The notes below the pieces were generated by a model, which was not told the origin of the DNA, made no database searches, and was given only the letters and a program-made list of their open reading frames with translations. From assembly GCA_030637025.1 (NCBI GenBank), contig DAOVVV010000013.1, positions 1-61,161 of the forward strand: 61,161 nt of DNA, read 5' to 3'. Source of the DNA: JAGLHV01 sp023143305 [NCBI: Clostridia bacterium]. GTDB lineage: Bacteria; CBDUZB01; JAGLHV01. The first letter of the stretch is position 1, and each line of letters begins with the position of its first letter. A program made the translations under genes and the position numbers. Of the stretch, positions 17,987-61,161 are shown piece after piece.

Positions 17987-18110
17987 AATTAAGACCCCTT
18001 CAAATATTAAATGGTGTTTTTTAGTATCTTTTTTTATCCGACTAAAAAAGACGGGAATAGAAAAAAAGATGTTAAAGCATAATGGAGAAAGTGGTTAAGA
18101 ATGTTAAAAG

Positions 18111-18119
18111 TTATCCACA
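18111..18119 (+). promoter_or_regulatory. Perfect DnaA box TTATCCACA
   Basis: An exact consensus match in the AT-rich spacer 125 bp upstream of the dnaA start. Confidence 0.85.
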
Positions 18120-18132
18120 GGTTATTAACAAA

Positions 18133-18141
18133 AGTGGATAA
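18133..18141 (-). promoter_or_regulatory. DnaA box TTATCCACT
   Basis: Complement of AGTGGATAA, one mismatch from consensus, in inverted orientation to the box at 18111. Confidence 0.7.
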
Positions 18142-18293
18142 CTTTGTTTTTTCCAAAACAGCCATTTTTGCCTGAATTGTTTTTACTGCGAAAGAAAAGG
18201 ATAAAAAAAAGAAAAACAAACAAAATGCAAAAAAGGACTCCTAAAGTGTAATCTAAAAAGGACAAAAAGTCAAGAAAAAAGAAAGTGTCTTAA

Positions 18294-18794
18294 TTACTTA
18301 CCGGTAATGTAATAGCTAATTCTTAAAAATTTGGTATATTTACGAAGAGTTTGAGCTTTTAATTGTTTCTTTTTTAGATCGTCCGGAGCATCTTGAAACG
18401 CAGGGAGATCATTAAGAAGTTTTTCTAAATATTCTGTTTCTTACTCGGGAGTCATAAAATTATCCCGGATTTCTTTAAATTCACCGGAATCTAGAAAAAA
18501 ACCGCCGCAGGTACAACATTCGTCAATAGTAATTTCTTTTTGAGAAGGATATCTAAGTATGTGCATGGGAATGTTGCATTTTGGACAATTAATTTTTCCC
18601 CGGGAGTCAGTATTTAGTCTCGGAAAAAGGAGGGTCTCTTTAAGCGCACCACCAAATCCTTCATTTTTTTCATCAAGTTTCCTTAATTTCAACCAATCAA
18701 ACCAGATTCCCTTACAGCCGCTTTCACAGATGTCAACCAAGACTGCTCCTAAATCTTTTTCTGTCATCATTTTTTGACAAAGAGGACAATTCAT
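18294..18794 (-). pseudogene. Zinc-ribbon (zf-TFIIB-type) protein gene with an in-frame TAA
   Basis: From the ATG at 18794 the frame encodes 117 residues with paired zinc ribbons (CPLC ... CESGCKGIWFD; CPKC ... CCTCGGFFLDSGE) and ends MTPE at a TAA (18441-18443). The same frame then runs 48 further sense codons to a TAA at 18294-18296, reading ETEYLEKLLNDLP, then KAQTLRKYTKFLRISYYITGK. From memory, related proteins are about 165 residues long with such a tail, so the TAA looks like a nonsense mutation or a sequence error. The truncated 117-residue protein may still fold. Function is unknown; the fold binds zinc. Confidence 0.75.
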
Positions 18795-18825
18795 AGCATT
18801 CCTCCTTTAATATAAAAAGGCAAAA

Positions 18826-18979
18826 GAGTTCTGCAAAATACAATATTCTGTCATTCCGCTCCGCCTCATCCGCCTGAGGCGGAGGATGATGCGGAATCTA
18901 TAATGTTTTTAAATATCAATAGATTCCTGCTTTCGCAGGAATGACAATCAAGGTAAAAAGGCTATTTTGCAGAAGTCTA
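18826..18979. repeat. Family A miniature inverted-repeat element (copy 2)
   Basis: It runs from GAGTTCTGCAAAATACAATATTCTG to GGCTATTTTGCAGAAGTCT, with inverted ends and a core (TCTATAATGTTTTTAAATATCAATAGATTCC) that is the complement of the copy at 44601-44728. An extra palindrome, CCGCCTGAGGCGG, lies within. The rest of the spacer up to the rpmH promoter has no gene. Confidence 0.85.
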
Positions 18980-19177
18980 ATAAAAAGATAATGTTAAAAA
19001 TAGCTGCATATTTCTGTTCTGATTTTTGAAAAATAGTTTTTTTAGCAGGTCATCTTTTTTAATACTACCGATAAGATTTTTGATAAATAAAACATTTTAC
19101 ATTATTAGGTATAATTATAAAGAGAAAAAATAAAAAGTCAAGAAAGTTCTTAAAGATTCTTTTATATTTTTATTTTC

Positions 19178-19206
19178 TTGACAAAGGGTAATTGATAAAG
19201 TATAAT
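19178..19206 (+). promoter_or_regulatory. Consensus sigma-70 promoter for the rpmH operon
   Basis: TTGACA (19178-19183) and TATAAT (19201-19206) are both perfect and exactly 17 bp apart. rpmH starts 51 bp downstream, giving a short leader. A promoter of this strength fits a ribosomal protein operon. Confidence 0.9.
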
Positions 19207-19256
19207 CAAACCCAAATTTCAAAGGGTGTAACTATTTTAGGATTCAGGAGAAAAAG

Positions 19257-19391
19257 ATGAAAAGGACTTTTCAACCAAATATAAGAAAAAGAAAAAAGAA
19301 ACACGGTTTCAGGAAAAGAATGAGCACACAAGAAGGACAGGCAATTTTAAGCCGAAGAAGGAAAAAAGGAAGAAAAAAATTATCTGCATAA
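19257..19391 (+). CDS. rpmH: 50S ribosomal protein L34
   Basis: The 44-residue protein, [18 protein letters not shown] followed by [17 protein letters not shown] and a basic tail, is a clear L34. AGGAG lies 6 nt before the ATG. It starts the conserved rpmH-rnpA-yidD-yidC run, divergent from dnaA across the origin, the classic bacterial arrangement. Confidence 0.97.
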
Positions 19392-19407
19392 AGATAAATA
19401 AAATGAA

Positions 19408-24083: not shown

Positions 24084-24107
24084 TTCGTTTTTTAAAAACA
24101 ATAAATC

Positions 24108-27313: not shown

Positions 27314-27420
27314 ACATTGAAAAGAATAATACCGGAAGAAATGTTACCGGTTTAACTTAATAAGATAAAAAAGATGCGGTTTTTGTTAAAAAAAAGAAAA
27401 GTTAAGAGGTTTAGTGAAAG

Positions 27421-27996: not shown

Positions 27997-28001
27997 AAAA
28001 A

Positions 28002-45772: not shown

Positions 45773-46076
45773 AATTTGTATCATCGGAGAAAAAGAATTT
45801 ATTTCCGGCTTTGAAAGTCTGGGGTTTTCTGTTTTTCCGGTAAAAAATAATGTAGAAACCGAAGAAGCATTAAAAAAAGTTATAGAACAAAAATTCTCTA
45901 TTATTTATTTAATGGAAGATTTTTTGGAAAATTTTGAAAAAACAAGAGAAATAAGTAAGACTTTTACGGGGACAATAATAACTATTCCCGGTCAAAAAAA
46001 GGGGAAAAATATAGGGTGGATGAGATTGAAAAAAATGGTAGAAGAAGCTACAGGGGTTGATTTATTAAAAGAGTAA
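45765..46076 (+). CDS. V/A-type ATPase subunit F
   Basis: The 103-residue subunit has the short alpha/beta fold start [18 protein letters not shown] and [21 protein letters not shown]. It binds subunit D in the central axle. It overlaps C and lies 28 bp before A. Confidence 0.9.
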
Positions 46077-46104
46077 AAAAGAGATAAGGTTAAAGGAGAA
46101 TATA

Positions 46105-47892
46105 GTGAAAATAAAAGGAAAAATAATAAAAGTATCCGGTCCTTTGGTAGTAGCTACGGATTTACCGGGGGTAAAGATGTACGAAGTCGTCCGGGTGGGA
46201 GCAGAAGGGTTAATAGGGGAGGTAGTGGAGTTAAAAGGAGACCATGTTTCCATTCAGGTTTATGAAGAAACTACCGGGATAGGTCCGGGAGAGGTTGTGG
46301 TTGCTACCGGACAACCTTTATCAGTAGAATTAGGTCCGGGATTGGTTACTTCTATTTATGACGGAATTCAACGGCCCCTGGAGGTAATAAGCCAAAAAGT
46401 AGGGGATTATATTTCCCGGGGGATAGATTTTCCCAAAATTAATCGGGAGAAAAAATGGAAATTTATTCCACTGGCCAAGAAGGGAGAAAAGGTTAAAGCC
46501 GGAGATATTTTAGGGCAGGTTAATGAAACCGAATTAGTAATACATAAGATTATGGTTTCTCCCGGGGTAGAAGGAACTATAAAAAATATTTTTGCCGGAG
46601 AATTTACCGTAGAAGAGACTATTGTGGAGTTGAATGTTGAAGATGAAAAGCAAATAAAAAAGCTTTGTATGTTACAGCACTGGCCGGTAAGGCAAGCACG
46701 GCCTTACCGGAAAAAACTTAGTCCCCATGAACCATTAATTACCGGGACACGGGTAATCGATACTTTTTTTCCCATAGCCAAGGGAGGAACAGCCTGTATC
46801 CCGGGCCCTTTTGGATCAGGAAAAACGGTTGTCCTTCACCAATTAGCCAAATGGTCGGATGCGGATATTATTGTTTATGTGGGATGTGGTGAGCGGGGAA
46901 ATGAAATGACCGATGTTTTATTAGAATTTCCGGCCTTGAAGGATCCTCACACCGGGGAATCATTAATTAAAAGAACAATTTTAATTGCTAATACCTCTAA
47001 TATGCCGGTGGCGGCACGGGAAGCTTCTATTTATACCGGGATTACACTGGCTGAATATTTTCGGGATATGGGCTATAAAGTAGCTTTAATGGCTGATTCC
47101 ACTTCCCGCTGGGCTGAGGCATTAAGGGAAATGTCCGGAAGATTGGAAGAAATGCCGGGAGAAGAAGGTTATCCTGCTTATTTAGCCTCAAGAATAGCTT
47201 CTTTTTATGAAAGAGCCGGAATGGTAGCCTGTTTAGGCTCTGATAATCGCATTGCTTCTCTTTCTATTATTGGGGCGGTTTCTCCTCCCGGAGGAGATTT
47301 GGCTGACCCGGTAGTACAGAATACTTTGCGTATTGTAAAAGTTTTTTGGGGGTTGGAAGACCGTTTAGCTTATATGAGGCATTTTCCGGCAATAAACTGG
47401 TTGCGCAGTTATTCGTTATATTTAGATAATCTTTATGGGTTTATGGAAAAAGAAGTAGCCCCTGATTTTATGAAAATGCGTAATGAAGCTCTGAAGATTT
47501 TACAGAAAGTGGCCAATCTGGAAGAAATTGTCCGTCTGGTAGGATTAGAAGCTTTGTCAGCAGAGGATAGATTAATTTTAGAGATGGGGAAAACAATAAA
47601 AGAAGATTTCTTGCATCAACATGCTTTTGATGAGGTAGATACTTATACTTCTTTAAAAAAACAGTATCTGATGCTTAAGATTATTATGCGGTTATATTAT
47701 TTAGTGCGGGAATTAGTAGATAAAATTCCTTTTGAACAATTAATAGAGTTAAAAGTCAGGGAAGAGATAAGTAAAATGAAATTTATAGATGAAAAAGAAA
47801 TCAATCGGTTTGAAGACATTGAAAAACAATTGGAAAAAGAGATAAAAATGAAAAAGGATTCTTTGGAAAAAGAAAGCGTATTAAGTGAATAA
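46105..47892 (+). CDS. V/A-type ATPase catalytic subunit A
   Basis: The 595-residue subunit begins at a GTG with AAAGGAG upstream. It has the beta-barrel start [16 protein letters not shown], a non-homologous bulge region (110-200), Walker A GPFGSGKT at 234-241, [35 protein letters not shown] and the ATP-site stretch. It hydrolyses or makes ATP. All catalytic motifs are intact. The gene is followed by a TPR gene rather than directly by B. Confidence 0.97.
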
Positions 47893-47912
47893 ATAAAGGG
47901 TGGTTACTTGAA

Positions 47913-49526
47913 ATGCTTAGCCAAATACTAAATTTTGAAAGAAAGAAAAGTTATTGGATTATCGGATTGGTGCTGTTTTGTGGTTTAGTTTTATCTTGCA
48001 GTAAGGGAGAAGACGCGGTTAGCAAAACGATAAAGGAAAGCGAACATTTAATTCAGGCAAAAGAGGCTTTTTTGCAAGGCGATTGGGATAAAGTAATTCA
48101 ATACGGGGAAGAAGGAATAAAAAAAGAGCCGGATGATGCTATTCTGAGTCAATTATTGTTGGCTGCTTATGTATTGAAAGGAGACGATTTTTATAAAAAG
48201 GCGATAGAGTTTACAATAAAAAAAGAAGTACTATTAGAAAAGAATGAAAAAAAATTTTTGAATTGGGCCCGAAATTTGGTTAAAAATAATTCTCAGAACA
48301 GCTATTCTCATTATTGTTTAAGTAAATCAATGGGGAAAAAGAAAAAGGCAATCGGACCTTTGAAAAAAGCAATAGAAATTAATTCTCAATTTAGTGAGGC
48401 TTATTCCAGATTGGGAATGATTTTTGAAGAGAAAAAAGCATGGGATAAAGCCGAGTTTTATCTAAAAAAAGCATTGGAAAACAGCCAAAATTCAAAGGCT
48501 ATAAATTTGTGGCGTTTATCTTTTATGTATTTGTCGTCAAAAAAATATGAATTGGCTGAATCCTATGCATTAAAGGCTATTGAAAAAAAAACCGATTTTG
48601 AAATGGCGTATCTTACTTTAGGGGCTATTTATTTCCGAATGAATGAATTAGGAAAGGCAATCAATTCCTGGAAGGAATTTGTTCGCCTGGATCCTGAGGA
48701 AAAAATAGGAAAAGGGATAAAAGAACAGATTTTATTATTAGAAAAAATGCTTAAAAATAAAGAGATATTACTGAAAAGCGTTTCTATGGATGAAGAAAAG
48801 ATTTCGATATTAAAAGAAGCTTTATTGCAAGGGGATTGGAATAAATTGATTGAATTTGGAGAAAAAGAAATAAAAGAAAACCCCCATAATTTGCTGCTTT
48901 GTCATTTGCTCCATTCAGCTTATGAGTTTAAAGGGGATCCTTTTTTGGAAAAAGTTCAAGATTTCCTGGCTGAAATAGAACCATTGTTTAAAAATAAAAA
49001 GAATATGAATAAAGTTTTTACCTGGGCGGAAGAGTTAACTAAAAAATATCCCCAAAATTGTTATGCGCATTTTCATTTGGGCAAAAGTTCTCTGGGAATG
49101 GGTAAAAGTGGAAAAGCAATTGAGTCCTTTAAAAAAGCAATAGAGATTAATCCAACGTTTAGCGAAGCTTATTTTCGACTAGGAGCTATTTATGAGCAGG
49201 TAAATTCATTGAATAAAGCTGAATATTATCTGAAAAAAGCCCTTGAAAATCCGCAAAATTCAGAAGCTAAATATTCTATAAGTCTTGCAGATATTTATGA
49301 GTCTTTGAAAGAGTACAACCTTGCTATGGATTATGCACTAAGGGCTATCGAAAAAAAACCTGATTATACAGGAGCATATGTTTTTATTGGGACTCTTTAT
49401 ACAAAAAAGGGCAATTATAATTTAGAAATGGCGAAAAATTACTGGGAAAAAGCTGTTCAATTAGATCCTAATGGAGAAAATGGGAAATTGGCACAGGAAT
49501 GGATTTTATCATTACCAAAGAAATAA
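47913..49526 (+). CDS. TPR lipoprotein inside the ATPase operon, internally duplicated
   Basis: The 537-residue protein has a membrane-like start and lipobox LVLSC with Cys29 (FCGLVLSCSK). The rest is two related halves, about 51-275 and 301-530: EAFLQGDWDKVIQYGEEGIKK against EALLQGDWNKLIEFGEKEIKE, and AIEINSQFSEAYSRLGMIFEE against AIEINPTFSEAYFRLGAIYEQ. Each has several tetratricopeptide repeats (KAEFYLKKALENSQN). It probably acts as a periplasmic scaffold. It begins 20 bp after A and ends 57 bp before B, so it is co-transcribed with the ATPase. No ATPase subunit of this type is known to me. Confidence 0.85.
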   Translation: MLSQILNFERKKSYWIIGLVLFCGLVLSCSKGEDAVSKTIKESEHLIQAKEAFLQGDWDKVIQYGEEGIKKEPDDAILSQLLLAAYVLKGDDFYKKAIEFTIKKEVLLEKNEKKFLNWARNLVKNNSQNSYSHYCLSKSMGKKKKAIGPLKKAIEINSQFSEAYSRLGMIFEEKKAWDKAEFYLKKALENSQNSKAINLWRLSFMYLSSKKYELAESYALKAIEKKTDFEMAYLTLGAIYFRMNELGKAINSWKEFVRLDPEEKIGKGIKEQILLLEKMLKNKEILLKSVSMDEEKISILKEALLQGDWNKLIEFGEKEIKENPHNLLLCHLLHSAYEFKGDPFLEKVQDFLAEIEPLFKNKKNMNKVFTWAEELTKKYPQNCYAHFHLGKSSLGMGKSGKAIESFKKAIEINPTFSEAYFRLGAIYEQVNSLNKAEYYLKKALENPQNSEAKYSISLADIYESLKEYNLAMDYALRAIEKKPDYTGAYVFIGTLYTKKGNYNLEMAKNYWEKAVQLDPNGENGKLAQEWILSLPKK

Positions 49527-49583
49527 ACACTTACAATTGGGTTTGTATCATGAATCCTGTATCGTGAAAAAGAGGAGGAAACA

Positions 49584-50978
49584 TTGAAAGTTAAAGAATA
49601 TAGAACTATTTCCGGGATGGCCGGTCCGTTGATTTTCGTAGAAGGCACTGAAGGAATAAAATATGGAGAAATCGTGGAAGTGCGCTTAGGCCTTGCCGGT
49701 AGTAATAAGAGGGAAAAAGTTCGCACCGGAAAAGTTTTGGAAGTCATAAATGATAAGGTTTTAGTCCAGTTATTTGAAGGAAGTGCCGGGTTAAATCTAA
49801 ATGAGAGCCGTATAAAATTTTTAGGGAGGGGGGTTGAATTAGCCGTTTCCCCTGATATGTTGGGAAGAATTTTTGACGGGATGGGAAAACCTATTGATGG
49901 AGGCCCGGAGATTATACCGGAGAAAAAACTGGACATAAACGGAGAATCGATTAATCCGGCTGCCCGGGATTATCCTAATGAATTTATTCAAACAGGGGTT
50001 TCTGCTATTGATGGGATGAATACACTGGTACGGGGACAGAAATTGCCTATTTTTACCGGTTCAGGACTTCCTCATAATGAATTGGCTGCCCAGATAACCC
50101 GACAGGCAAAAATTTTAGGCAAAGATGAAAAATTTGCGGTAATTTTTGCGGCTATGGGTATTACTTTCGAAGAAGCGGATTATTTTATTAATGATTTTAA
50201 AAAAACAGGGGCTATTGAAAGAGCAGTTCTTTTTGTTAATTTGGCTAATGACCCGGCGATAGAAAGATTGGCTACGCCCCGGATAGCTTTGACGGCGGCA
50301 GAATACCTGGCTTTTAGTCAGGGAATGCATGTATTAGTCATTCTCACCGATATGACCAACTATGGGGAAGCCTTACGGGAAGTTTCTGCAGCCAGAAAAG
50401 AAATTCCGGCTCGCAGAGGATACCCGGGATATATGTATACTGATTTATCTACTATTTACGAACGGGCAGGAAGGATAAAAGGAAAGAAAGGCTCCATTAC
50501 CCAAATTCCTATTTTAACTATGCCCGAAGATGATAAAACCCATCCTTTACCGGATCTTACCGGATATATTACCGAAGGACAGATTATTTTAAGCCGGGAA
50601 TTGTACCATAAAGGGGTTTATCCCCCGGTAGATGTTTTACCCTCTCTTTCCCGGTTGAAAGAAAAAGGCATTGGACAAGGTAAAACCAGAGAAGACCATG
50701 CAGATGTAACTTCTCAGCTTTTTGCTTCTTATGCCCGGGGAAAAGAAGTTAAGGAATTAGCCGTGATATTAGGGGAAGCAGCTCTTTCTCCCGTAGATAA
50801 ATTGTTTGCCCGCTTTGCCGATATTTACGAAAATGAATTTATTAAACAGGAAGAAGAGGACAATAGGACTATTGAAGATTCTTTAGATTTGGCCTGGCAG
50901 CTCTTAAAAACACTTCCCAGAAACGAATTAAAAAGAGTAAAGGATGCTATGGTAGAAAAATATATGCGGAAAGAGTAA
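49584..50978 (+). CDS. V/A-type ATPase regulatory subunit B
   Basis: The 464-residue subunit begins at a TTG preceded by GAGGAGG. It has [17 protein letters not shown], the degenerate P-loop [16 protein letters not shown] (no Walker Lys), [36 protein letters not shown] and [16 protein letters not shown]. It forms the A3B3 hexamer with A. Confidence 0.97.
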
Positions 50979-50982
50979 AGTA

Positions 50983-51603
50983 ATGCGTTTAAATGTTAAT
51001 CCCAATAGAATGGAATTACTGAAGTTAAAAAAGCGGATAGTTCTGGCTCATCGCGGGCATAAACTATTAAAAGATAAACAAGATGAATTAATGCGTTATT
51101 TTTTAAGCCGGTTGACCGAAGTTAAAAAACTGCGAAAGGAAGTAGAAAAGGCTTTAAAAGAAGCACATCAATATCTTCTTCGTGCCCGGGCGATTAGTTC
51201 TTCCCAGGTAATAGAAGAGGCATTGCTTTTTCCTACGGTTAAAATTGAGCTGGAAAGTTTTTTTACTCCTTTGATGAATTTAAGGTTGGTTAATTATCGG
51301 TTGAAAATAGAAGAGAAGGAAGGTTCTTATGGTTTGGTGAATACTTCCAGTGGTTTAGATGATGCGGTAGAGCATTATAAGCAGGGTTTACCTAAAATGA
51401 TAAAATTAGCTGAATTAGAAAAAAATTTGGAGATTATAGCTAAAGAAATCACCCTTACCCGCCGCCGGGTCAATGCTTTGGAATATATATTAATTCCGGA
51501 CCTTAAAGAAACCATAAGGTATATTTCTATGAAACTGGTGGAAATAGAGCGGGGAAATCTGGTGCGATTGATGAAAGTAAAAGAAATAGTCAGGGAACAT
51601 TAG
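50983..51603 (+). CDS. V/A-type ATPase subunit D
   Basis: The 206-residue subunit is the long coiled-coil axle: RLNVNPNRMELLKLKKRIVLAHRGHKLLKDKQDELM at the start and RRRVNALEYILIPDLKETI near the end are family landmarks. It follows B by 4 bp and closes the operon. Confidence 0.95.
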   Translation: MRLNVNPNRMELLKLKKRIVLAHRGHKLLKDKQDELMRYFLSRLTEVKKLRKEVEKALKEAHQYLLRARAISSSQVIEEALLFPTVKIELESFFTPLMNLRLVNYRLKIEEKEGSYGLVNTSSGLDDAVEHYKQGLPKMIKLAELEKNLEIIAKEITLTRRRVNALEYILIPDLKETIRYISMKLVEIERGNLVRLMKVKEIVREH

Positions 51604-51620
51604 AGACTAAAAACTTGTTA

Positions 51621-51656
51621 AATTGGTTGAATTGGTTTGATTGGTTGAATTGGTGA
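51621..51656. repeat. Short degenerate tandem repeat of ATTGGTTGA
   Basis: AATTGGTTGA, ATTGGTTTGA, TTGGTTGAAT and TGGTGA give about four units of 9-10 bp after the ATPase operon. A related GTTGAATTGGTTAAAAGG run occurs near 55983. Confidence 0.6.
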
Positions 51657-51703
51657 AAAAGGATAAAAAGGGAGAGTCTATAATTTTTTTTGTATGATAA
51701 AAT

Positions 51704-52630
51704 ATGAGTAAAGACAATAAAATATTAAAAGTATATGATGTAATTTACCCCGAGGAAGAAAAAAATATTCCTGCTATCTATGAAAAGGATAAACAATTCT
51801 TTGATATGGCAGTGAAACTATTAAAATTATTCAGTCTTTTGAAAGAGATAATTAAACCGGAGAATAGTAGTAAGGAAGTTATAGAAGCACTTTTTGGATT
51901 GCACACGCAATCATTTAGATTATTTCGTTCTATTGTGATATTATGTAAATCCGGTCTTGCATCAGAAGCCTGCATACAACTTCGTTCTTTATTAGAAGTA
52001 ATAAGTTATTTGCTTTATATTGCTGAAAAAGATCACAGGGAACGATTAGCACATTATCAACATTCCAGAAATTTATCGGAAGAAGTTGCTATGGATAAAT
52101 TTTTATTTTGTTTCCCTGAGGATAAAAAAGAACAAAATGAAAAACGGCAGCAAATATTAAAAAAAAAGGAAGAAGCAATACAATATTTTCGAAAAAAACA
52201 TTCTGAAAATTTATCGGAAAAAATTAAAGAGGAAATAAAAAAATTAGCGTGTATTAATCCCAAAAATAAAAATATAAAAATAGAAAAAATAGAACTTAAA
52301 ATTATCAAAAGAGATTATTGTTTGAAACCACAAGAAGCAGGTGAATCCTTAAGAGATAACAAGTTTTTTATTAAGAATTACAAGGTTCTTTATCCTCGTG
52401 CATCGGCTATAAGTCATGGTGAAAAAATAAATGAGTTTAGTTGTTCTACTGATAATCCGACAGAATTTCGAGGCCGATTGATGGGAGGACATAGAAGAGA
52501 GTGTTTAATTTGTTCCTGTACTCTTTTTTTCTTGGGTATCCAAAAGATAAATGAGTTATTTCAAATAGGAAAAGAGGATAGAATAAACGAGATGGATAAT
52601 GAGTTAGATGAGTATTATGAAAAACAATAA
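51704..52630 (+). CDS. DUF5677-like protein
   Basis: The 308-residue helical protein has the pattern of DUF5677 members: an amino region FFDMAVKLLKLF, then SFRLFRSIVILCKSGLASEACIQLRSLLEVISYLLYIAEKD, and a later YPRASAISHGEKIN with the conserved Ser-His-Gly. Such proteins occur in many bacteria with unknown function, sometimes in defence or accessory regions. The internal stretch 130-210 is Lys/Glu-rich. It stands alone between repeat-rich spacers. Confidence 0.6.
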   Translation: MSKDNKILKVYDVIYPEEEKNIPAIYEKDKQFFDMAVKLLKLFSLLKEIIKPENSSKEVIEALFGLHTQSFRLFRSIVILCKSGLASEACIQLRSLLEVISYLLYIAEKDHRERLAHYQHSRNLSEEVAMDKFLFCFPEDKKEQNEKRQQILKKKEEAIQYFRKKHSENLSEKIKEEIKKLACINPKNKNIKIEKIELKIIKRDYCLKPQEAGESLRDNKFFIKNYKVLYPRASAISHGEKINEFSCSTDNPTEFRGRLMGGHRRECLICSCTLFFLGIQKINELFQIGKEDRINEMDNELDEYYEKQ

Positions 52631-52704
52631 TAAGCAAGTAATAAAGGGATGATAGACCCTTATTTCTTTATAGGTGGGATAAAGTTCAAAAAGAGGTGAT
52701 TAAA

Positions 52705-53514
52705 ATGCCGGTAATCGGGATGGCTACCAGTAATTTTTTTATGGAGAAAGATATTTTTGAATCAATAAAATTTGCCCGGGATAATGAGTTTTCCGGAGTA
52801 GAAATATGGAGTGATGTTCCTCATTGTTATGTTGACGAGTTTAGTAAGGGTAAAGAGCAGTGGGGTAAATTAAAAGAACTTTTAACTAAAAGTAAATTGC
52901 AAAGTGCTTTCCATGCTCCTATGTTTGGAATAAATATTGCCTCGGTAAATCATGGTATACGGAAAGAATCAATACGCCAGGTAATGGCTGCAATAGATTT
53001 GGCCCAGACTGTAGGAAGTGAAATAGTAGTTTTTCATTCCGGTAAAAGGCCGGCGGTAATAACTTCTTCCAGGGTAAAAGAGGTAACTTTTAGTTTGAAT
53101 AAAGAAGCAATTATTGCCATAAAAAAATATGCTCAGGGAAAAAAAGTGCATGCAGTACTGGAAAATTGTGGAGTCGATAAAGATGATTACGAGGAAAGTT
53201 TACCTGATTTTATGTACTTAGTTGAAAGTTGTGAAATAGATGTATGCTGGGATGTGGGTCATTCCCACTGTTCCTGGGGGGTAAAAGAGACCTTTGAGTC
53301 CTTAAAAGACAAAATTAAGCATATTCATATTCACGATAATGATCGTACTTATGATCAACATTTACCTGTGGGGATGGGAAATATTGATTACCAGCTGGTG
53401 TTTCCTTTTTTGAAAAAATTTTCCGGGATGATTGTTCATGAAATTCAAAGTATAGATAATTGCGAGGAAAAAACAATTCAGAGTAAAAAGGAATTGGATA
53501 AATTGTTAAGGTAG
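52705..53514 (+). CDS. Sugar phosphate isomerase/epimerase-like TIM barrel
   Basis: I chose the ATG at 52705 (AGAGGTG upstream) giving 269 residues beginning MPVIGMATS; a GTG at 52696 is possible. The AP-endonuclease-2/xylose-isomerase-type fold shows EFSGVEIWSDVPH, LQSAFHAPMFGINIASVN, VVFHSGKRPA, LENCGVDKDDY, VCWDVGHSHCS and IHIHDNDRTYDQHLPVGMGNID with likely metal ligands (Glu, Asp, His). A sugar isomerase or endonuclease IV-like function is possible; the substrate is unknown. Confidence 0.85.
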   Translation: MPVIGMATSNFFMEKDIFESIKFARDNEFSGVEIWSDVPHCYVDEFSKGKEQWGKLKELLTKSKLQSAFHAPMFGINIASVNHGIRKESIRQVMAAIDLAQTVGSEIVVFHSGKRPAVITSSRVKEVTFSLNKEAIIAIKKYAQGKKVHAVLENCGVDKDDYEESLPDFMYLVESCEIDVCWDVGHSHCSWGVKETFESLKDKIKHIHIHDNDRTYDQHLPVGMGNIDYQLVFPFLKKFSGMIVHEIQSIDNCEEKTIQSKKELDKLLR

Positions 53515-53780
53515 AGAAAACAGCAAACATTAATGTAAGATGGATTTATTTTAAAAATACTGTAATATTTTTAAGTAATAGTTCATAAAGGCATAAAGGC
53601 ACAGAGGCACAAAGTTAAAAGATAAAAGACTGCTAACGGCAAAAAATAGTCCATAGTCAGAAATTACAGTTATTAGTTACGAGTTATAAATTATTAGTTA
53701 AAAAAAAGTTTAAATTTTGCTTGTTCGCTCCGCCTGAGGCGGATAAGGCGGGAAGTTGGGAGTTTGAACGAGGAAAATGA

Positions 53781-53936
53781 AGGCAAAACATATTTTTCTC
53801 TAGATGCATAATTTTACCCTATGGGCACGCAAAAACAAGCTAAAAATGGAAAACTCGCTTTGCTCAGACAGTTCCATTTTTTTAACGCTTGTTTCTGCTA
53901 AAATTTGCTATATCGTTCAAAACACATTTTCCCTTC
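53781..53936. repeat. Family B miniature inverted-repeat element (copy 1)
   Basis: Ends AGGCAAAACATATTTTTCTC and CAAAACACATTTTCCCTT are inverted. Internally it has the GGGCACGCAAAAACAAGC, CTCGCTTTGCTCAGACA and TTTTTTTAACGC blocks shared with the 60836 and 61021 copies. Confidence 0.8.
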
Positions 53937-54192
53937 ATTTTTTTGTTTGTAATTGTTCCGTTTATAGAGGTGTTTTTTCGTGTTTATTCTTTGTCTCTGT
54001 TTTTGTCTTTTTCTTTTAACTTTGTGCCTCTGTGCCTTGATGCCTTTGTGCCTGTCTTTAACTGTATTTTGAAGTTGGGAGTTGGGAATTTGAAATAATA
54101 GTCAAGTATAGTTTATGACACGAACGGAGTGAGTCTGTGACTGTTTGTGATACAGTATTTATGAGTTGGGGGTTTGGAACGAGGTAAAAGGA

Positions 54193-54395
54193 AGGCAAAA
54201 TATGTTTTTCATAGGATGGCATAGTTTTACCCTATGGGCATGCAAAAACAGGCTAAAAATGGCTTAGACAGGCTTATTTTTTTTACGCGAATTTAATTTG
54301 GGGCGAGACCTTGGTTGCCCAAAAGACTTAAAGGGTGGGTAAGCCCACCCCTACGCAAAAAATTTGCTATATCGTTCAAATCACATTTTCCCTTC
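54193..54395. repeat. Family B element (copy 2) carrying a ~64-bp insertion
   Basis: Left end AGGCAAAATATG and right end CACATTTTCCCTT fit family B. The middle is replaced by GGGCGAGACCTTGGTTGCCC and GTGGGTAAGCCCACCC, a different palindrome-bearing insert. Confidence 0.7.
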
Positions 54396-54633
54396 ATTTT
54401 TTTGTTTGTAATTGCTCTGTTTATAGAGGTGTTTTTTCGTGTTTATTCTTTGTCTCTGTTTTTGTCTTTTTCTTTTAACTTTGTGCCTCTGTGCCTTGAT
54501 GCCTTTGTGCCTGTCTTTAACTGTATTTTGAAGTTGGGAGTTGGGAATTTGAAAAAGTAGTCAAAAATAGTTTGTGATATAGTATTTATGTACGGATTAT
54601 TTAACACTATTTACGAAGGGAGCGAAATAATCT

Positions 54634-55947
54634 ATGAATCGAATATTAGAAAAAATTTTTAAATTAAAAGTTCATAGAACAACGATAAAAACAGAAATAT
54701 TGGCGGGTCTGGTTACTTTTATGACTATGGCTTACATTATTATCGTTAATCCGGCTATTCTACAAAGGGCTGGAATACCTATCGGTCCCTCAATGGTGGC
54801 TACGATAATTGCTGCCTTTTTTGGAACAATATTAATGGCTTTTTATGCTAATAGACCTTTTGCCATTGCCCCTTATATGGGTGAAAATGCTTTTATTGCT
54901 TTTACAGTAGTAGGTGTATTGGGCTATTCCTGGCAAACGGCTCTGGGAGCTGTTTTTATCGGGGGCGTAATTTTTACCTTACTTACCGTTTTTAAACTGC
55001 GGGGTTGGTTAGCCAATGCTATTCCGTTAGGACTTAAATATAGTTTTGCCGCTGGAATAGGATTGTTTTTAACTTTTATTGGATTAAATGAAACAGGCAT
55101 TGTTTGTTTAGGGGTTCCCGGTGCACCGGTTCATCTGGGGAAGGTTACCAGTACGCCTGTATTGTTATCTATATTTTGTTTTGTTTTGATATCTGCCTTA
55201 ATGATTAAGAAGATAAAAGGATCCATAATTATTGGAATATTAGCAACGACTTTTTTGTCTTTTATTTTTGGAGTAGCAGAAGTTCCTTCCCGTTGGATTA
55301 GTTCTCCCCCCAGTCTTGCCCCTATTTTTCTTAAAATAGATTTTTTAGGTGCTTTAAAATGGGGATTTGTTCCTATAATCCTTACTTTATTTATTATGGA
55401 TTTTGTAGACACTATTGGAACATTGATTGGGGTCTCTGCCCGGGCTGGATTTTTGGACAAACAAGGAAATCTTTCGGAAATAGAAAAACCGATGTTAGCG
55501 GATGCCTTAGCTACTATTGTTGGTTCATTAGTAGGAACTACAACCACTGGGACTTATATTGAATCGGCTGCAGGAATTGAAGAAGGTGGGCGGACAGGAT
55601 TGAGTTCTTTGATTGTAGCTCTGTTGTTTTTAAGTAGTCTTTTTTTTGTTCCTTTTCTTACCGCAATTCCTTCTCTGGCTTATGGTCCGGTTTTAATTAT
55701 TGTTGGTCTTTTAATGTTAGAGTCAATAACTAAAATTAATTTTAGCGATTATACAGAATCTATCCCTGCTTTTGTAGTTATAATTTTGATGAGTTTTACT
55801 TATAATATAGGAGTGGGAATAACCGGGGGTTTTGTTCTGTATCCTTTTTTTAAAATTGTTGCAGGGAGATATAAAGAAATTCATCCGGCAATGTGGATAT
55901 TAACCGGGATGTCTCTTTTGTTTTTTATATTTTATCCTTATGGATGA
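54634..55947 (+). CDS. NCS2 purine permease (AzgA/PbuG-like)
   Basis: The 437-residue permease has 12-14 hydrophobic helices and family motifs: AGLVTFMTMAYIIIVNPAIL, FAIAPYMGENAFIAF, FMDFVDTIGTLIG-type IMDFVDTIGTLIGV, GSLVGTTTTGTYIESAAGI. It belongs to the AzgA-like hypoxanthine/guanine/adenine transporters of the inner membrane. GGGAGCG lies just before the ATG, but no riboswitch is evident upstream in the repeat DNA. Confidence 0.93.
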   Translation: MNRILEKIFKLKVHRTTIKTEILAGLVTFMTMAYIIIVNPAILQRAGIPIGPSMVATIIAAFFGTILMAFYANRPFAIAPYMGENAFIAFTVVGVLGYSWQTALGAVFIGGVIFTLLTVFKLRGWLANAIPLGLKYSFAAGIGLFLTFIGLNETGIVCLGVPGAPVHLGKVTSTPVLLSIFCFVLISALMIKKIKGSIIIGILATTFLSFIFGVAEVPSRWISSPPSLAPIFLKIDFLGALKWGFVPIILTLFIMDFVDTIGTLIGVSARAGFLDKQGNLSEIEKPMLADALATIVGSLVGTTTTGTYIESAAGIEEGGRTGLSSLIVALLFLSSLFFVPFLTAIPSLAYGPVLIIVGLLMLESITKINFSDYTESIPAFVVIILMSFTYNIGVGITGGFVLYPFFKIVAGRYKEIHPAMWILTGMSLLFFIFYPYG

Positions 55948-56041
55948 AAAAAACTGTTTAATTAGTTAAATTTGTTTTATTCGTTGAATTGGTTAAAAGG
56001 ACAAACAGATACGGATGTATGATTTTTAAAACTTAAGAAAA

Positions 56042-56057
56042 TGTTTCACGTGAAACA
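56042..56057. promoter_or_regulatory. parS site 1 (perfect)
   Basis: TGTTTCACGTGAAACA is the exact 16-bp ParB-binding palindrome, flanked symmetrically as AAAA...TTTT. It lies in the spacer between the purine permease and the patatin gene. Confidence 0.95.
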
Positions 56058-56135
56058 TTTTTAAGATGATTCTACGATTTTTGGTAATATTTTGCGAAAG
56101 AGATTTTATAAGAAAGCACAAAAAGGAAAAAATAA

Positions 56136-57074
56136 ATGCGTAAGTTAAAAGTGGGATTAGCTTTGGGTGGAGGTGGAGCAAGGGGATTCGCTCATTTGGG
56201 AATCTTAAAAGTCTTTCAACATCATAAAATTCCCATTGACATTATTGCCGGAACAAGTATGGGTGCGATGATTGGAGGATTGTATGCTTTACATCCGGAT
56301 ATTGATTTTTTGGAAAATAAAATACAAAATAATTTAAAAAGCGATTTATTTGGTGAACTGAGTAGAAATCTTTTAAAACAAGATGAGAATATTCAAATCA
56401 GGCCATTTCATCGTTTTATTAGTTATATTAAACAGTTATACCTTTATTATAATTTATATAAAAAGAAAGATTCTCTCCTGGAAGAAAAACAAATAGAAAA
56501 GATTTTAGAGGTGCTTTTTTCCGAAAAGAATATAGAAGACACAAAAATTCCTTTTGTCTGTGTGGCCGCAGATCTTTGCAAGGGAGAAGAGATTACTTTT
56601 TTTAGGGGTTCAATGAGAGAAGCTGTTCAGGCCAGTATGACTATTCCCGGGGTTTTTCCTCCTTTACGATGGAAAGAGAAATTACTGGTGGATGGAGCGG
56701 TGGTAGAGACGGTACCTGTTTCTGCGGCTTTTAAATTGGGAGCGGATATAGTAATTGCGGTAGATGTGAGGAGTAAGTTACGACATACAAGCAGTATAGA
56801 TAATGGACTCGCTATTATTTTTAGAGCAAATAAAATTACTGGAATAAAATTTTCTGATTTGCAATTAAAGGAAGCGGATTTTATACTTAGTCCCGGAATA
56901 AAAAATATTTCCTGGATGAGTTTTAAAAAAGCTGGTTATTGTATTCAACAAGGGGAAAAAGAGGCAAATTTGAAGATAGAGGAAATAAAAACCTTAATTA
57001 AGAGAATGAGAAAAAAGACATTTTTAAAAAGACTCCTGGGAGGGGAGAGAAATAAAAAGAGGATTGGTGAATAA
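56136..57074 (+). CDS. Patatin-like phospholipase
   Basis: The 312-residue protein has the patatin catalytic layout: glycine-rich GLALGGGGARGFAHLG (oxyanion), nucleophile Ser41 in GTSMG, and Asp186 in VDGAVVE completing a Ser-Asp dyad. The MTIPGVFPPL segment is typical. It has no obvious signal peptide, as for the RssA/YjjU-like cytosolic group. It should act on acyl esters; the substrate is unknown. It lies between two parS sites. Confidence 0.9.
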   Translation: MRKLKVGLALGGGGARGFAHLGILKVFQHHKIPIDIIAGTSMGAMIGGLYALHPDIDFLENKIQNNLKSDLFGELSRNLLKQDENIQIRPFHRFISYIKQLYLYYNLYKKKDSLLEEKQIEKILEVLFSEKNIEDTKIPFVCVAADLCKGEEITFFRGSMREAVQASMTIPGVFPPLRWKEKLLVDGAVVETVPVSAAFKLGADIVIAVDVRSKLRHTSSIDNGLAIIFRANKITGIKFSDLQLKEADFILSPGIKNISWMSFKKAGYCIQQGEKEANLKIEEIKTLIKRMRKKTFLKRLLGGERNKKRIGE

Positions 57075-57090
57075 GGGTGGGGATGAATAA

Positions 57091-57164
57091 AGGCAAAATA
57101 TGTTTTTCTCTAAACGCTTATTTTCGCTAAAATTTGCTAAGTCGTTCAAAACATATTTTACCTT
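57091..57164. repeat. Short family B element (copy 3)
   Basis: AGGCAAAATATGTTTTTCTC at the left and AAAACATATTTTACCTTT at the right, with CGCTTATTTTCGCTAAAATTTGC between. It is an internally deleted version of family B. Confidence 0.75.
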
Positions 57165-57237
57165 TATTTTTTAGTAGTTATTTTACATTAGAGCGAATAA
57201 AAATGTCAAATAAGAGTGGAGTAAATAGTTTAATTTC

Positions 57238-58020
57238 ATGAAAAAAATAGAAAATTTATTTAAAAGCGGACTGGGTCCATTAGGAATAGAAATTGAGACA
57301 GAGCAATTAAATAACTTTCTAATTTATTTGGAACAATTAAAAGAATGGAATAATCAATTTAATTTAACATCCATAGTTCAGGAAAAAGATATTATCATCA
57401 AGCATTTTATTGATTCGCTTACTTGTTTTTTATGTTTTCCCAATATTTTTAAACAGCGGTTTGGAAAAGGGTTTATTTTATCACCTTCTTCAAATTTATT
57501 GAAAGATTGGAAAATCATGGATGTTGGTTCGGGGGCCGGATTTCCCGGATTACCGCTTAAAATTTGTGTTCCGGAAATAAAATTGACTTTATTAGAGAGT
57601 TCAAGAAAAAAAGCATTGTTTTTAAAACATATTTGTAAAAAATTACAACTAAGGGATGTTTTAGTCCTTTATAATCGGGCAGAAATTTGTGGAAGGGATT
57701 TGCAGTATAGAGAAAAATATGAAATAGTAGTTTCCCGTGCTGTAGGGAAACTATCTTTTTTAGCAGAATATTGTTTGCCTTTTGTAAAAGTAAATGGTAT
57801 AATGATAGCTCAAAAGGGACCGGCAGTGGAAGAGGAATTAAAAGGAGCTGAAAAAGCAATCAATATTTTGGGAGGGAAGATCAAAGAAATAAAGGAAATA
57901 GACCTTAAATTTGAAAAAATAGAATTGAAAAGAAATTTGGTGGTTATTGAAAAAATATTTACTACTCCGGAAAAGTATCCCAGAAAACCCGGGATGCCTT
58001 CCAAGAGGCCGATAAAATAA
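57238..58020 (+). CDS. rsmG: 16S rRNA (guanine-527 N7)-methyltransferase RsmG
   Basis: The 260-residue enzyme has LEQLKEWNNQFNLTSI, the SAM-binding MDVGSGAGFPGLPLKI, TLLESSRKKALFLKHI and VVSRAVGKL. It methylates G527 of 16S rRNA. It is longer than usual because of an insert before the SAM motif (about 75-95, ending SSNLLKDWKI). rsmG next to parAB is a common arrangement; the parS sites here fit that, though parAB is not present. Confidence 0.92.
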   Translation: MKKIENLFKSGLGPLGIEIETEQLNNFLIYLEQLKEWNNQFNLTSIVQEKDIIIKHFIDSLTCFLCFPNIFKQRFGKGFILSPSSNLLKDWKIMDVGSGAGFPGLPLKICVPEIKLTLLESSRKKALFLKHICKKLQLRDVLVLYNRAEICGRDLQYREKYEIVVSRAVGKLSFLAEYCLPFVKVNGIMIAQKGPAVEEELKGAEKAINILGGKIKEIKEIDLKFEKIELKRNLVVIEKIFTTPEKYPRKPGMPSKRPIK

Positions 58021-58059
58021 TAACTATTCCCCTGTGAGGTGAGAAAGGGTTTGATAAAT

Positions 58060-58075
58060 TGTTTCACGTGAAACA
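58060..58075. promoter_or_regulatory. parS site 2 (perfect)
   Basis: The same TGTTTCACGTGAAACA, here with extended symmetry AATTG...CAATT, 40 bp after rsmG and 22 bp before the next gene. Confidence 0.95.
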
Positions 58076-58096
58076 ATTTGGAAAAGGAGGGAAGGG

Positions 58097-58948
58097 ATGG
58101 TTAAGGAAATTATATTGAAGCATTTGTTTGATATAATAAAAAAAGGAGCTAAAATTACTTATGCAAATATTAAGTATGGTTTAATTTTCGCGTTAGTAAA
58201 TTTTATTTGGATTTTTTATCTTGGAAAAGAAAGATATGGCCTGATTGAAATAATGGGGGTCTTGTCCGGAGGGATTTTAATAATATTTGTTTTCGCAGGT
58301 ATGGTAAGTGTAATAAAAGATAATTTAAAAAATTTACCGGTTAATTTTAGAGAAGGAGGAAAAAAGTACTTTTTTAAAGTTTTAGGTTGGGTAATTTTAG
58401 GAATATGGTTAAATGTTATAAATAGCTGTATTTTTGCCCTTTTGCCTTTCTGTTTCGCTAATATTTACTTGTTGTTGCCCCTAGGAATAATAATGGCTAT
58501 AATAATAGCCATATATCTTCTTTCTTTAATAAATATATTTGTATACGAAGATACATCTATGTTTAATAGTGTTTATGCAACATTGCAATTTGTTAGGTGT
58601 TATTTTTCTCAAATCCTTTATTTGTTTTTTATACTTTCCCTTGTTGGAATGGGAATAGAAGGAATTTATTTAGGAATTAGATTTTTGGCAACACTGGTGA
58701 AAGATATTAATTATGTTAATATTGTAATTTTAAGTGTAGGAAAAATTTTAAAAGAAATTTTTTATGCTATATTTATTTTTTTGGTAAGCACTGTTTTAAT
58801 GGGATTTTACCACTCAAAAAAAGAGGAATTTTTTCCAAAGGGTTGGAAAACAACCTGGAAGAAATCAGTTGTTGTTTCTATAGCAGTGATTGTAAGTAGT
58901 TTATTAGTTATCGGTGTTTTGTGGGGCTATACACAAAACGTCCGATAA
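58097..58948 (+). CDS. Polytopic membrane protein of unknown function
   Basis: The 283-residue protein starts behind AAGGAGGGAAGGG. It has a short amphipathic N-terminus (LKHLFDIIKKGAKITYANIKYG) and six or more hydrophobic helices, with the loop FAGMVSVIKDNLKNLPVNFREGGKKYFFKVLG. The organisation resembles the protein at 7835-8647. A functional call is not possible; the position next to two parS sites is noted. Confidence 0.7.
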   Translation: MVKEIILKHLFDIIKKGAKITYANIKYGLIFALVNFIWIFYLGKERYGLIEIMGVLSGGILIIFVFAGMVSVIKDNLKNLPVNFREGGKKYFFKVLGWVILGIWLNVINSCIFALLPFCFANIYLLLPLGIIMAIIIAIYLLSLINIFVYEDTSMFNSVYATLQFVRCYFSQILYLFFILSLVGMGIEGIYLGIRFLATLVKDINYVNIVILSVGKILKEIFYAIFIFLVSTVLMGFYHSKKEEFFPKGWKTTWKKSVVVSIAVIVSSLLVIGVLWGYTQNVR

Positions 58949-58971
58949 AAAAAGATATAATATTTTGAAAG

Positions 58972-59118
58972 ATGCACAAATCCTTGAGAAGTGGCAAAGA
59001 AAAACTTTTGGATAAAAATATGCAGGTTGAAGGAGACTTAGTTTGTATTGTAAATTTAGAGGTTGATTTTGAAAAACAAATTAAACAGATTCTTTGTAGT
59101 TTGAAGGAAGAGGAATAA
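58972..59118 (+). CDS. Small hypothetical protein
   Basis: A 48-residue frame begins MHKSLRSGKEKLLD and contains GDLVCIVNLEVDFEKQIKQI, ending in acidic residues. It has no strong ribosome site and no recognised family. It might be real or a remnant. Confidence 0.3.
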   Translation: MHKSLRSGKEKLLDKNMQVEGDLVCIVNLEVDFEKQIKQILCSLKEEE

Positions 59119-59174
59119 AGATGTGTTCGGTAAGACCTTATTTTACCTGCGAGATGGGATAAGAGCAAAAAAAA

Positions 59175-59190
59175 TGTTTCACGTGAAACA
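59175..59190. promoter_or_regulatory. parS site 3 (perfect)
   Basis: A third exact TGTTTCACGTGAAACA with flanks AAAA...TTTT, 60 bp before the GH13 gene. Confidence 0.95.
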
Positions 59191-59250
59191 TTTTAGTGGT
59201 AGGTTTTAGTTTTTTTATGTGATGTACACAGGAATAAAGGTGAAAAGAGA

Positions 59251-60759
59251 ATGATTGAGCAGAATGATATTATTTATTTTATGCTTACCGATAGGTTTTG
59301 TGATGGGGATTCTCAGAATAATTCAAGCGTGGACAAGGAGAACCTTTATCGTTATCACGGAGGAGATTTTGCCGGAATAGTAAAGAAGATTCCCTATTTT
59401 ACAAATTTGGGGATTACTGCTTTATGGATTACTCCGGTTTATCTTAATATTGGAAATTTTTATGGGACTGATAGCTATCATGGATATTGGGCATTGGATT
59501 TTGAAAAAGTAGATTCTCATCTTTATTCTCATAATCCGGAATTAGTAGAAGGGAGTAAAGAATATCTTAAAGAATTAGTTAATCAATTACATCAAGCAGG
59601 AATAAAGGTAATTTTAGATGTAGTAGTAAATCATACCGGGTATCACAATGAAAAGTATTTTAATTATCCGGATAAGAAAATAAAAAATGAATGGTTTAAT
59701 CAAGGACTGGCAGGAGATGAAATCGAAGGATGTTTGGCTGGTTTACCGGATTTAGACCATGACCAACCGGATGTAGTAGATTATTTTGTCAATAATATTG
59801 TGGATTGGATAGAAGAAACCCGAATAGATGGTATTCGTATGGATACAGTAAAACATGTAGAAAAGAAATTCTGGTATTTTTTTAAATCCTATGTCAAAGG
59901 GAAACACCGCAATATTACTCTGATTGGAGAAAATCTTGAATATAATGTAAATAATATTGCTCGATACCAGAAAGACTATGATTTTGATAGCTTATTTAAC
60001 TTTCCCTTGTGTAGAGAGATTAAGAAAACATTTATTTATAATGAAAGCATGACCCAACTTGCCCGTCCTCGTCTTAGTAATGATGAACCCCAGGGAATTT
60101 TAGACAGGGATGCTTGTTATACCAACGCTAATCGTTTGGTCAATTTATTAGATAATCATGATCTTTCCAAAAGATTTATGACTGAAATTCTTGATTGTTA
60201 TGGCCATTGGGATAGATGGCTTGCTCTTAAAATATTTAAATTAGCCCTTTCTTTTTTATTTACCGGGAGAGGGATCCCTCAAGTTTATTATGGAACAGAA
60301 ATTGGACTGGAGGGTTATGCTGATCCGGACAACCGTAGATTTATGCCCTGGAAAAAGGTTTTTGGCGAAAATCCGGATTTTGAACCATTAAACCAATGTT
60401 CAGAGCAAAGAGAAATTTTTTTGCATACAAAGCAATTAATTAAGATTAGAAAAGAAAATGAAGCCCTGACCTGGGGGTATTTGTTTACCCTTTATGCCGA
60501 CCATTTTATATATGCTTTTATACGGGAATATCGAGGAAATATAGTTATAGTAGTAATTAATAACGGCCTCCGGGAAATGTCCTATCCTTTATTTATCCCT
60601 ATTGCGGTTAATGGTAATATTCCTTTTCGGATAAAAGAAAAAATACAAAGCAAAAAATTAATTAATTTACTTAATGCCTCTGATGAAATAAAAGAGGAAA
60701 GAGGGGGGCTTTCAGTAATACTGGGGGGAAAGACAGCCAAGATATATAAGTTAGAATAA
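59251..60759 (+). CDS. GH13 alpha-amylase-family glycoside hydrolase
   Basis: The 502-residue enzyme has all GH13 regions: DVVVNH (123-128), GIRMDTVKH with nucleophile D198, IGENLE with acid/base E227, and LLDNHD with D304. It starts MIEQNDIIYFMLTDRFCDGD, a cyclomaltodextrinase/amylase-like start, and lacks a signal peptide, so it should be cytoplasmic and act on maltodextrins or storage glucan. A small C-terminal beta domain is visible. Substrate specificity (neopullulanase, alpha-amylase or transferase) is not resolved. Confidence 0.92.
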   Translation: MIEQNDIIYFMLTDRFCDGDSQNNSSVDKENLYRYHGGDFAGIVKKIPYFTNLGITALWITPVYLNIGNFYGTDSYHGYWALDFEKVDSHLYSHNPELVEGSKEYLKELVNQLHQAGIKVILDVVVNHTGYHNEKYFNYPDKKIKNEWFNQGLAGDEIEGCLAGLPDLDHDQPDVVDYFVNNIVDWIEETRIDGIRMDTVKHVEKKFWYFFKSYVKGKHRNITLIGENLEYNVNNIARYQKDYDFDSLFNFPLCREIKKTFIYNESMTQLARPRLSNDEPQGILDRDACYTNANRLVNLLDNHDLSKRFMTEILDCYGHWDRWLALKIFKLALSFLFTGRGIPQVYYGTEIGLEGYADPDNRRFMPWKKVFGENPDFEPLNQCSEQREIFLHTKQLIKIRKENEALTWGYLFTLYADHFIYAFIREYRGNIVIVVINNGLREMSYPLFIPIAVNGNIPFRIKEKIQSKKLINLLNASDEIKEERGGLSVILGGKTAKIYKLE

Positions 60760-60835
60760 AGGGTATATCAAAAATAGTCAGATATATAGTTTATGGCAAG
60801 GTATGACGCGGAAGAAGTGAGGGGGGGGTAGAACA

Positions 60836-60991
60836 AAGGCAAAATATGTTTTTCTCTAAACGCATAATTTTACCCTTCGGGCACGCAAAAACAAGCTAAA
60901 AATAAGCAACTCGCTTTGCTCAAACAAGCTTATTTTTTTAACGCTAATTTTTGCTAAAATTTGCTAAATCGTTCAAAACATATTGTGCCTT
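60836..60991. repeat. Family B miniature element (copy 4, full-length)
   Basis: AGGCAAAATATGTTTTTCTC and CAAAACATATTGTGCCTT are inverted ends of about 155 bp, with an internal AATAAGC/GCTTATT hairpin around CTCGCTTTGCTC. Confidence 0.9.
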
Positions 60992-61020
60992 TGTTCTAAA
61001 GAATAGGGGTGAAGAAGGAT

Positions 61021-61161
61021 AGGCAAAATATGTTTTTCTCTAAACGCATAATTTTACCCTTCGGGCACGCAAAAACAAGCTAAAAATAAGCAACTCGCTT
61101 TGCTCAGACAAGCTTATTTTTTTAACGCTAATTTTTGCTAAAATTTGCTAAGTCGTTCAAA
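61021..61161. repeat. Family B miniature element (copy 5, cut by the window end)
   Basis: It begins AGGCAAAATATGTTTTTCTC and runs nearly identical to copy 4 to the window end, 30 bp after copy 4. Two adjacent near-identical copies imply recent duplication or activity. Confidence 0.85.

What the first reader, a model, noticed from the sequence alone, without database searches (positions are those of the whole stretch)
56042..59190. Cluster of three perfect parS centromere sites without parAB in view
TGTTTCACGTGAAACA occurs exactly at 56042, 58060 and 59175, all in spacers and flanking the patatin, rsmG and membrane-protein genes. A 16-bp perfect palindrome three times in 3.2 kb is far beyond chance. 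It is about 38-41 kb from the predicted oriC. rsmG usually neighbours parAB, so the par genes may lie just outside or have moved. The neighbouring genes could have expression affected by ParB spreading.
Basis: partly seen in the sequence, partly recalled or inferred. Interest (0 to 1): 0.75.

Follow-up and report, generated by a model that had tools for sequence, protein, structure and literature searches.

The report
Ordinary chromosomal parS centromere cluster
Three identical copies of the standard bacterial centromere-like sequence lie near the replication origin of a little-known bacterium, and comparison with close relatives puts the partner segregation genes just past the end of the window, so this looks like a normal chromosome-segregation site.

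Summary
In detail: TGTTTCACGTGAAACA occurs exactly at 56042, 58060 and 59175, between genes, far beyond chance. The sites are best read as the parS cluster of a chromosomal ParABS system. In congeneric G003 (2.6 Mb) the site occurs twice, both in the syntenic spacers, with parA 250 bp after the amylase gene that is the window's last gene. In G004 the one copy is the counterpart of 56042, and parA and parB share a contig. G001, 99.66% identical over 8.1 kb at dnaA-gyrB, has a ParB with parS-type recognition residues, but its assembly lacks this stretch, rsmG and parA included. So parAB is probably 'not in view' only because the window ends, in a repeat, where parA should begin (inference; the own genome is not held). 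The cluster is 37-41 kb from a dnaA/GC-skew origin. Less ordinary: in G004 parA and parB are separated by GAF/HD and DUF3467 genes, and site number differs (3 against 2) together with one membrane-protein gene. New member of a known kind; low interest.

The parts
56042..56057 (.). parS site 1 (core of a 24-bp perfect palindrome), upstream of the patatin gene
   Evidence: exact copies at the corresponding place, L002:8755 and L114:8562
58060..58075 (.). parS site 2, between rsmG and the membrane-protein gene
   Evidence: no separate counterpart in G003
59175..59190 (.). parS site 3, between the membrane-protein gene and the amylase gene
   Evidence: non-coding flanks resemble those of L002:10822
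54634..55947 (+). xanthine/uracil permease-family gene, syntenic anchor
   Evidence: Pfam PF00860; 96% and 95% identical in L002 and L114
56136..57074 (+). patatin-like phospholipase gene
   Evidence: Pfam PF01734
57238..58020 (+). rsmG (gidB)
   Evidence: Pfam PF02527; 76% identical in L002
58097..58948 (+). membrane-protein gene between sites 2 and 3, not found in the corresponding interval of G003
   Evidence: no Pfam match; no match but itself in the window and the loci held at that time
59251..60759 (+). alpha-amylase family gene; in G003 parA starts 250 bp after the stop codon of its counterpart
   Evidence: Pfam PF00128
60836..61161 (.). two head-to-tail copies (the second cut by the window end) of an interspersed ~165-bp repeat, where parA would be expected
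17987..19407 (.). putative oriC gap between the dnaA-like and rnpA-like genes

Best explanation
The three palindromes are the chromosomal centromere (parS cluster) of a ParABS-SMC system. ParB dimers load on the sites with CTP, slide into the flanking kilobases, and the complex is moved by the ParA ATPase and serves as loading place for SMC, so that the origin region is segregated first. Shown here: the sites, their conservation in place, parA and parB in the genus, the sequence motifs in both, SMC in the genus, nearness to the origin. Inferred: binding, spreading, segregation, and that parA lies just past the window end in this very strain.
For: Exact triple occurrence. In G003 2 sites in 2.6 Mb, both syntenic, parA 1.8 kb beyond the nearer one; in G004 1 site in 1.9 Mb, syntenic. 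Spacer 1 across the three genomes: 16 of 16 site columns invariant against 53 of 143 gap-free columns outside. ParB in G001 (201 bits) and G004 (195 bits) over the TIGR00180 cut-off; HTH_ParB, ParB_N and ParB_C domains in the G004 ParB, the one scanned with Pfam; the G001 ParB matches solved ParB/Spo0J chains, best E 4.6e-65, and Noc chains less well. At Caulobacter positions 173/179/184/201 the two ParBs have R-S-T-G and R-S-N-G, the R-x-x-G class of parS binders and not Noc's Q-K-K-R (positions from PMC7383237, passages seen). GERRWRA and ENxQR motifs in both ParBs, KGGVGKTT in the ParAs of G003 and G004. SMC over the cut-off in 3 of 3 genomes of the genus. G003 matches window 11710-28762 and 28052-60760 on two contigs in the same order, so the origin-to-parS distance is about the same there if those contigs adjoin.
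Against: The window's own assembly is not held, so parA, parB and the genome-wide number of sites in this strain were not seen. G001, almost identical at the origin, has 0 sites with up to 1 mismatch; I put this down to a missing stretch: DNA of 55000-61161 finds only repeats, rsmG and the parA counterpart are missing. G003 has no parB match, and the 165 bases between its DUF3467 gene and the contig end show no start of parB, although parB follows DUF3467 by 53 and 43 bp in G001 and G004. rsmG is also missing from G004, whose contig ends after the patatin gene. T instead of S at position 172 in both ParBs, a residue that PMC7383237 lists as conserved. No binding data. Because I lowered this confidence from 0.96 to 0.95.
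Confidence: 0.95

Rival explanations
1. The palindromes are operators of a local transcription factor that controls the patatin, membrane-protein and amylase genes.
For: The sites lie 78, 21 and 60 bp upstream of the start codons of these genes.
Against: The 16-mer is the parS sequence (recalled; the letters occur once in PMC7022226 by the count, passage not shown). In G003 a copy stays in the rsmG-amylase spacer although the membrane-protein gene is not there; no further copies in G003 and G004.
Confidence: 0.02
2. They are Noc-binding sites (NBS) for nucleoid occlusion.
For: Noc and ParB are related and NBS differs from parS by only two bases, positions 1 and 6 (PMC7383237, passages).
Against: The sites have the parS letters; no NBS with up to 1 mismatch in the window, 2 places with 2 mismatches (NBS letters recalled); both ParBs carry R173/G201. 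One ParB-family match per genome in G001 and G004.
Confidence: 0.01
3. They are copies of a mobile or interspersed repeat.
For: The region is rich in interspersed repeats.
Against: Flanks of the three copies are unlike each other apart from a weak likeness upstream of sites 2 and 3; 1-2 copies in the relatives that have it, not dozens.
Confidence: 0.01

Closest known systems
Chromosomal ParABS of Bacillus subtilis / Caulobacter crescentus type (parS, ParB/Spo0J, ParA/Soj)
   Same: parS letters, several sites within a few kb near the origin, ParB with CTP-binding and HTH motifs, ParA with deviant Walker A motif, SMC in the genome.
   Different: In G004 parA and parB are separated by 2575 bp holding a GAF/HD gene, a DUF3467 gene and a small frame; the sites lie about 37-41 kb from the origin, against about 8 kb in Caulobacter (PMC5815017, abstract and passages). 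[quoted passage not shown]
Noc-NBS nucleoid occlusion
   Same: Related DNA-binding protein and site.
   Different: Site letters and ParB specificity residues are of the parS type.

Membership tests
Chromosomal ParABS (parS) | 16-bp parS sequence, clustered | tested here: met
   3 exact copies in 3.15 kb; consensus recalled
Chromosomal ParABS (parS) | Sites in the origin region and not spread over the genome | tested here: met
   About 37-41 kb from the origin in the window; G003 2 of 2 and G004 1 of 1 sites in the syntenic region. G001 has 0 (region not assembled). Own genome not held.
Chromosomal ParABS (parS) | ParB with N-terminal CTP-binding domain, HTH and C-terminal dimerisation domain | tested here: met
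   In the genus, not in the window: TIGR00180 match in G001 and G004, 2 of 3 genomes; three Pfam domains in G004; G003 none
Chromosomal ParABS (parS) | ParB specificity residues for parS (R173, G201) | tested here: met
   2 of 2 ParBs (PMC7383237, passages)
Chromosomal ParABS (parS) | ParA deviant Walker ATPase encoded near | tested here: met
   L002:12645-13406, 1.8 kb from a site; L115:4486-5247, on another contig than the G004 site; counterpart in 2 of 3 genomes
Chromosomal ParABS (parS) | parA and parB adjacent | tested here: not met
   2575 bp between them in G004; a usual but, as I understand the family, not a necessary feature
Chromosomal ParABS (parS) | ParB binds the sites, spreads, segregates the origin | not testable with these tools
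   needs ChIP-seq or in vitro binding
Noc-NBS | NBS letters and Q173/R201 residues | tested here: not met

The most novel reading that the evidence does not exclude
Two features of the genus may be more than decoration. First, parA and parB are split by a GAF/HD-GYP-like (possible cyclic-di-GMP phosphodiesterase) gene and a DUF3467 gene, which could couple a second messenger to chromosome segregation. Second, the centromere grew or shrank between close species by a parS-bearing spacer copied on both sides of one membrane-protein gene (3 sites here, 2 in G003), a natural case of parS copy-number change with the sites at the breakpoints.
Probability: 0.12. Interest if true: 0.45.

Novelty: new member of a known kind. 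Interest (0 to 1): 0.18.

Why it matters
It shows that a lineage with few sequenced relatives (one search gave 116 genomes, of which 3 are of the genus and the rest are told only as 'same domain') uses the standard bacterial centromere, and marks where ParB and SMC should load. The split par locus and the change in the number of sites between close species are small handles on how par loci and centromeres evolve, which PMC5815017 and PMC7333895 name as open questions (passages seen).

Tried and rejected
Search of the window's own genome: not held. A frame for the start of parA in the window tail: none seen in the three plus-strand frames, which are full of stops; the tail is repeat. 'G001 has a ParB but no parS' looked like a contradiction and was traced to a gap in its assembly. 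The start of parB in the last 165 bases of the G003 contig: not there. Noc/NBS and operator readings: rejected (and synteny).

The strong flank scores (58060 upstream and 59175 downstream against L002:10822) come largely from rsmG and amylase coding sequence and so only show synteny. Repeated on non-coding flanks only (30 pairs, global and local scoring, single-letter shuffles): 59175 against L002:10822, global, upstream 0 and downstream 3 of 2000 shuffles (local 31 and 83). 58060 against 59175 upstream 7 of 2000 (local 63), against L002:10822 upstream 46 of 2000 (local 1022). A pair with no reason to be alike, 58060 against L002:8755 downstream, also reached 7 of 2000 (its flank is only 21 bases), so the likeness of 58060 to 59175 is only suggestive.

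Literature: DUF3467 together with ParB gave 0 papers; a search for parS/ParB with candidate phyla and MAG terms gave 5 papers, listing seen only, none on this topic by title; Livny 2007 is not held; a cold-seep MAG listing was not read further. Searches were listings; passages were seen of PMC7383237, PMC7333895, PMC7022226 and PMC5815017. Broad survey: 68 of 116 genomes have TGTTNCACGTGNAACA and 100 of 116 a ParB-family match; only 3 of the 116 are of the genus, so this only says that motif and family are common.

Full report
What is there. TGTTTCACGTGAAACA occurs exactly at 56042, 58060 and 59175. Even with three mismatches allowed the window is expected to hold 0.30 matches, and 2.3e-5 exact ones from base composition. 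Seven distinct perfect 16-bp palindromes exist in the window and only this one recurs. Each copy is the core of a 24-bp perfect palindrome with A/T flanks; in the relatives the extent is 24 and 22 bp (L002) and 24 bp (L114). All three sites are in spacers between genes.

Where it is. dnaA- and dnaN-like frames run leftwards from 17986, and rnpA- and yidC-like frames run rightwards from 19408 (these four names are by recognition of the translations, not by a family search). GC skew changes sign between 16 and 20 kb with the cumulative minimum at 16258. The sites are thus about 37-41 kb from the origin. DnaA boxes are few (TTATCCACA at 18111 and three others), so the origin rests on gene order and skew.

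Relatives. The window's own assembly is not held. Three genomes of the genus came up among 116 relatives: G001, G003 (by contig number, length and site positions the same record as G002 and L002, 'Clostridia bacterium' CSMAG_496) and G004; stated completeness 94, 97 and 86%. G001 is 99.66% identical over window 13526-21665 but its assembly lacks this region: the DNA of 55000-61161 finds only repeats, that of 46000-55950 repeats and one 73% match of 452 bases, rsmG is missing, the parA counterpart is missing (best match 28%). It has one ParB and no 16-mer with up to one mismatch. G003 has the 16-mer twice in 2.6 Mb, at L002:8755 and 10822, in the spacers that correspond to 56042 and to rsmG-amylase; parA follows the amylase gene after 250 bp, then GAF-HD and DUF3467. 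No parB was found in G003, and the 165 bases between DUF3467 and the contig end hold no start of parB, where G001 and G004 have it after 53 and 43 bp. G004 has one site, counterpart of 56042, on a contig that ends after the patatin gene, and a second contig with parA, a small frame, GAF-HD, DUF3467 and parB in a row. G003 matches window 11710-28762 and 28052-60760 on two contigs that overlap near 28 kb of the window (matches of 300 bases or more), so the distance from origin to parS is about the same there if the two contigs adjoin.

Are the sites conserved because they matter? In the permease-patatin spacer of the window, G003 and G004 all 16 site columns are invariant, against 53 of 143 gap-free columns outside the site.

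Would the genus ParB bind them? The ParBs of G001 and G004 fit the spacing Q162-G170-K171-R173-N178-G201-R204 without gaps and carry R/S/T/G and R/S/N/G at the four specificity positions; position 172 is T, not S. PMC7383237 (passages) reports R173 and G201 as absolutely conserved in extant ParB orthologues and Q173/K179/K184/R201 for Noc. CTP-binding and Walker motifs are present (their meaning is recalled). The closest solved chains to the G001 ParB are ParB/Spo0J proteins. SMC is present in 3 of 3 genomes.

Why parAB is not in view. After the amylase gene the window has 402 bases, of which 60836-61161 are nearly all two copies of an interspersed repeat that also occurs many times in G001, often at contig ends. 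In G003 parA starts 250 bp after the amylase. The most likely reading is that a repeat lies before parA here and that the window ends in it. This is inference.

Two things that are less ordinary. (a) In G004 parA and parB are 2575 bp apart. Of the 30 best-scoring ParB loci that handed out (about 1.5 kb of flank each; 100 of 116 genomes had a match, so this is a capped part), 28 hold a ParA-like frame at E 1e-4; the two without are the two genus members. The DUF3467 and GAF-HD queries each match in 2 of the 30, the same two; GAF-HD also matches 1 of 30 parS loci. The genes between are GAF+HD (Pfam HD_5; the translation reads HDVGKIG and GTGYP, an HD-GYP-like signature by recall) and DUF3467. 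No paper with both DUF3467 and ParB is in the library. rsmG, which I recall as a frequent par neighbour, was found in 5 of these 30 ParB loci and 8 of 30 parS loci with the window's rsmG as query. (b) The rsmG-amylase interval has one site in G003 and two here, around a membrane-protein gene not found in G003's interval. Non-coding flanks make 59175 the likely counterpart of G003's site (0 and 3 of 2000 shuffles, global), and the upstream flank of 58060 is weakly like that of 59175 (7 of 2000; 30 pairs compared, and one pair without reason to be alike also reached 7 of 2000). A duplicated parS spacer is suggested, not shown; gain or loss cannot be told without an outgroup.

Verdict. The apparent lack of parAB is most likely an edge effect. 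Expression effects on neighbours remain untested.

Noticed in passing
60836-61000, 61021-61161, 53780-53935, 54192-54294, 54359-54394, 57090-57168, 24026-24085: Interspersed ~165-bp repeat family whose two ends are partly inverted copies, with many matches in G001 (often at contig ends) and fragments in L002 and L115; it probably breaks assemblies.
   Followed up: partly
L115:1062-5247 (G004): Par locus with parA and parB separated by a small frame, a GAF/HD-GYP-like gene and a DUF3467 gene; same GAF-HD, DUF3467, parB order in L001 (G001).
   Followed up: partly
58021-59250: Membrane-protein gene with a parS site on each side; G003 has one site and no such gene in the same interval.
   Followed up: partly
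L002:15945-16109: In G003 no start of parB follows the DUF3467 gene before the contig end, unlike G001 and G004; parB may be further away, unassembled or lost there.
   Followed up: partly
L002:147-1748: The V-type ATPase A-subunit frame at the start of L002 begins with sequence that looks like the end of an intein (VYDIEVPGDHNFIGGDFAMIYSN before the conserved part); the copies in the window (46105-47892) and L114 have none. From reading translations only.
   Followed up: no
18824-18992: A second interspersed repeat between the dnaA- and rnpA-like genes, in the putative oriC gap, with many matches in G001 and G003 and some in G004 (query 6425-6593).
   Followed up: no
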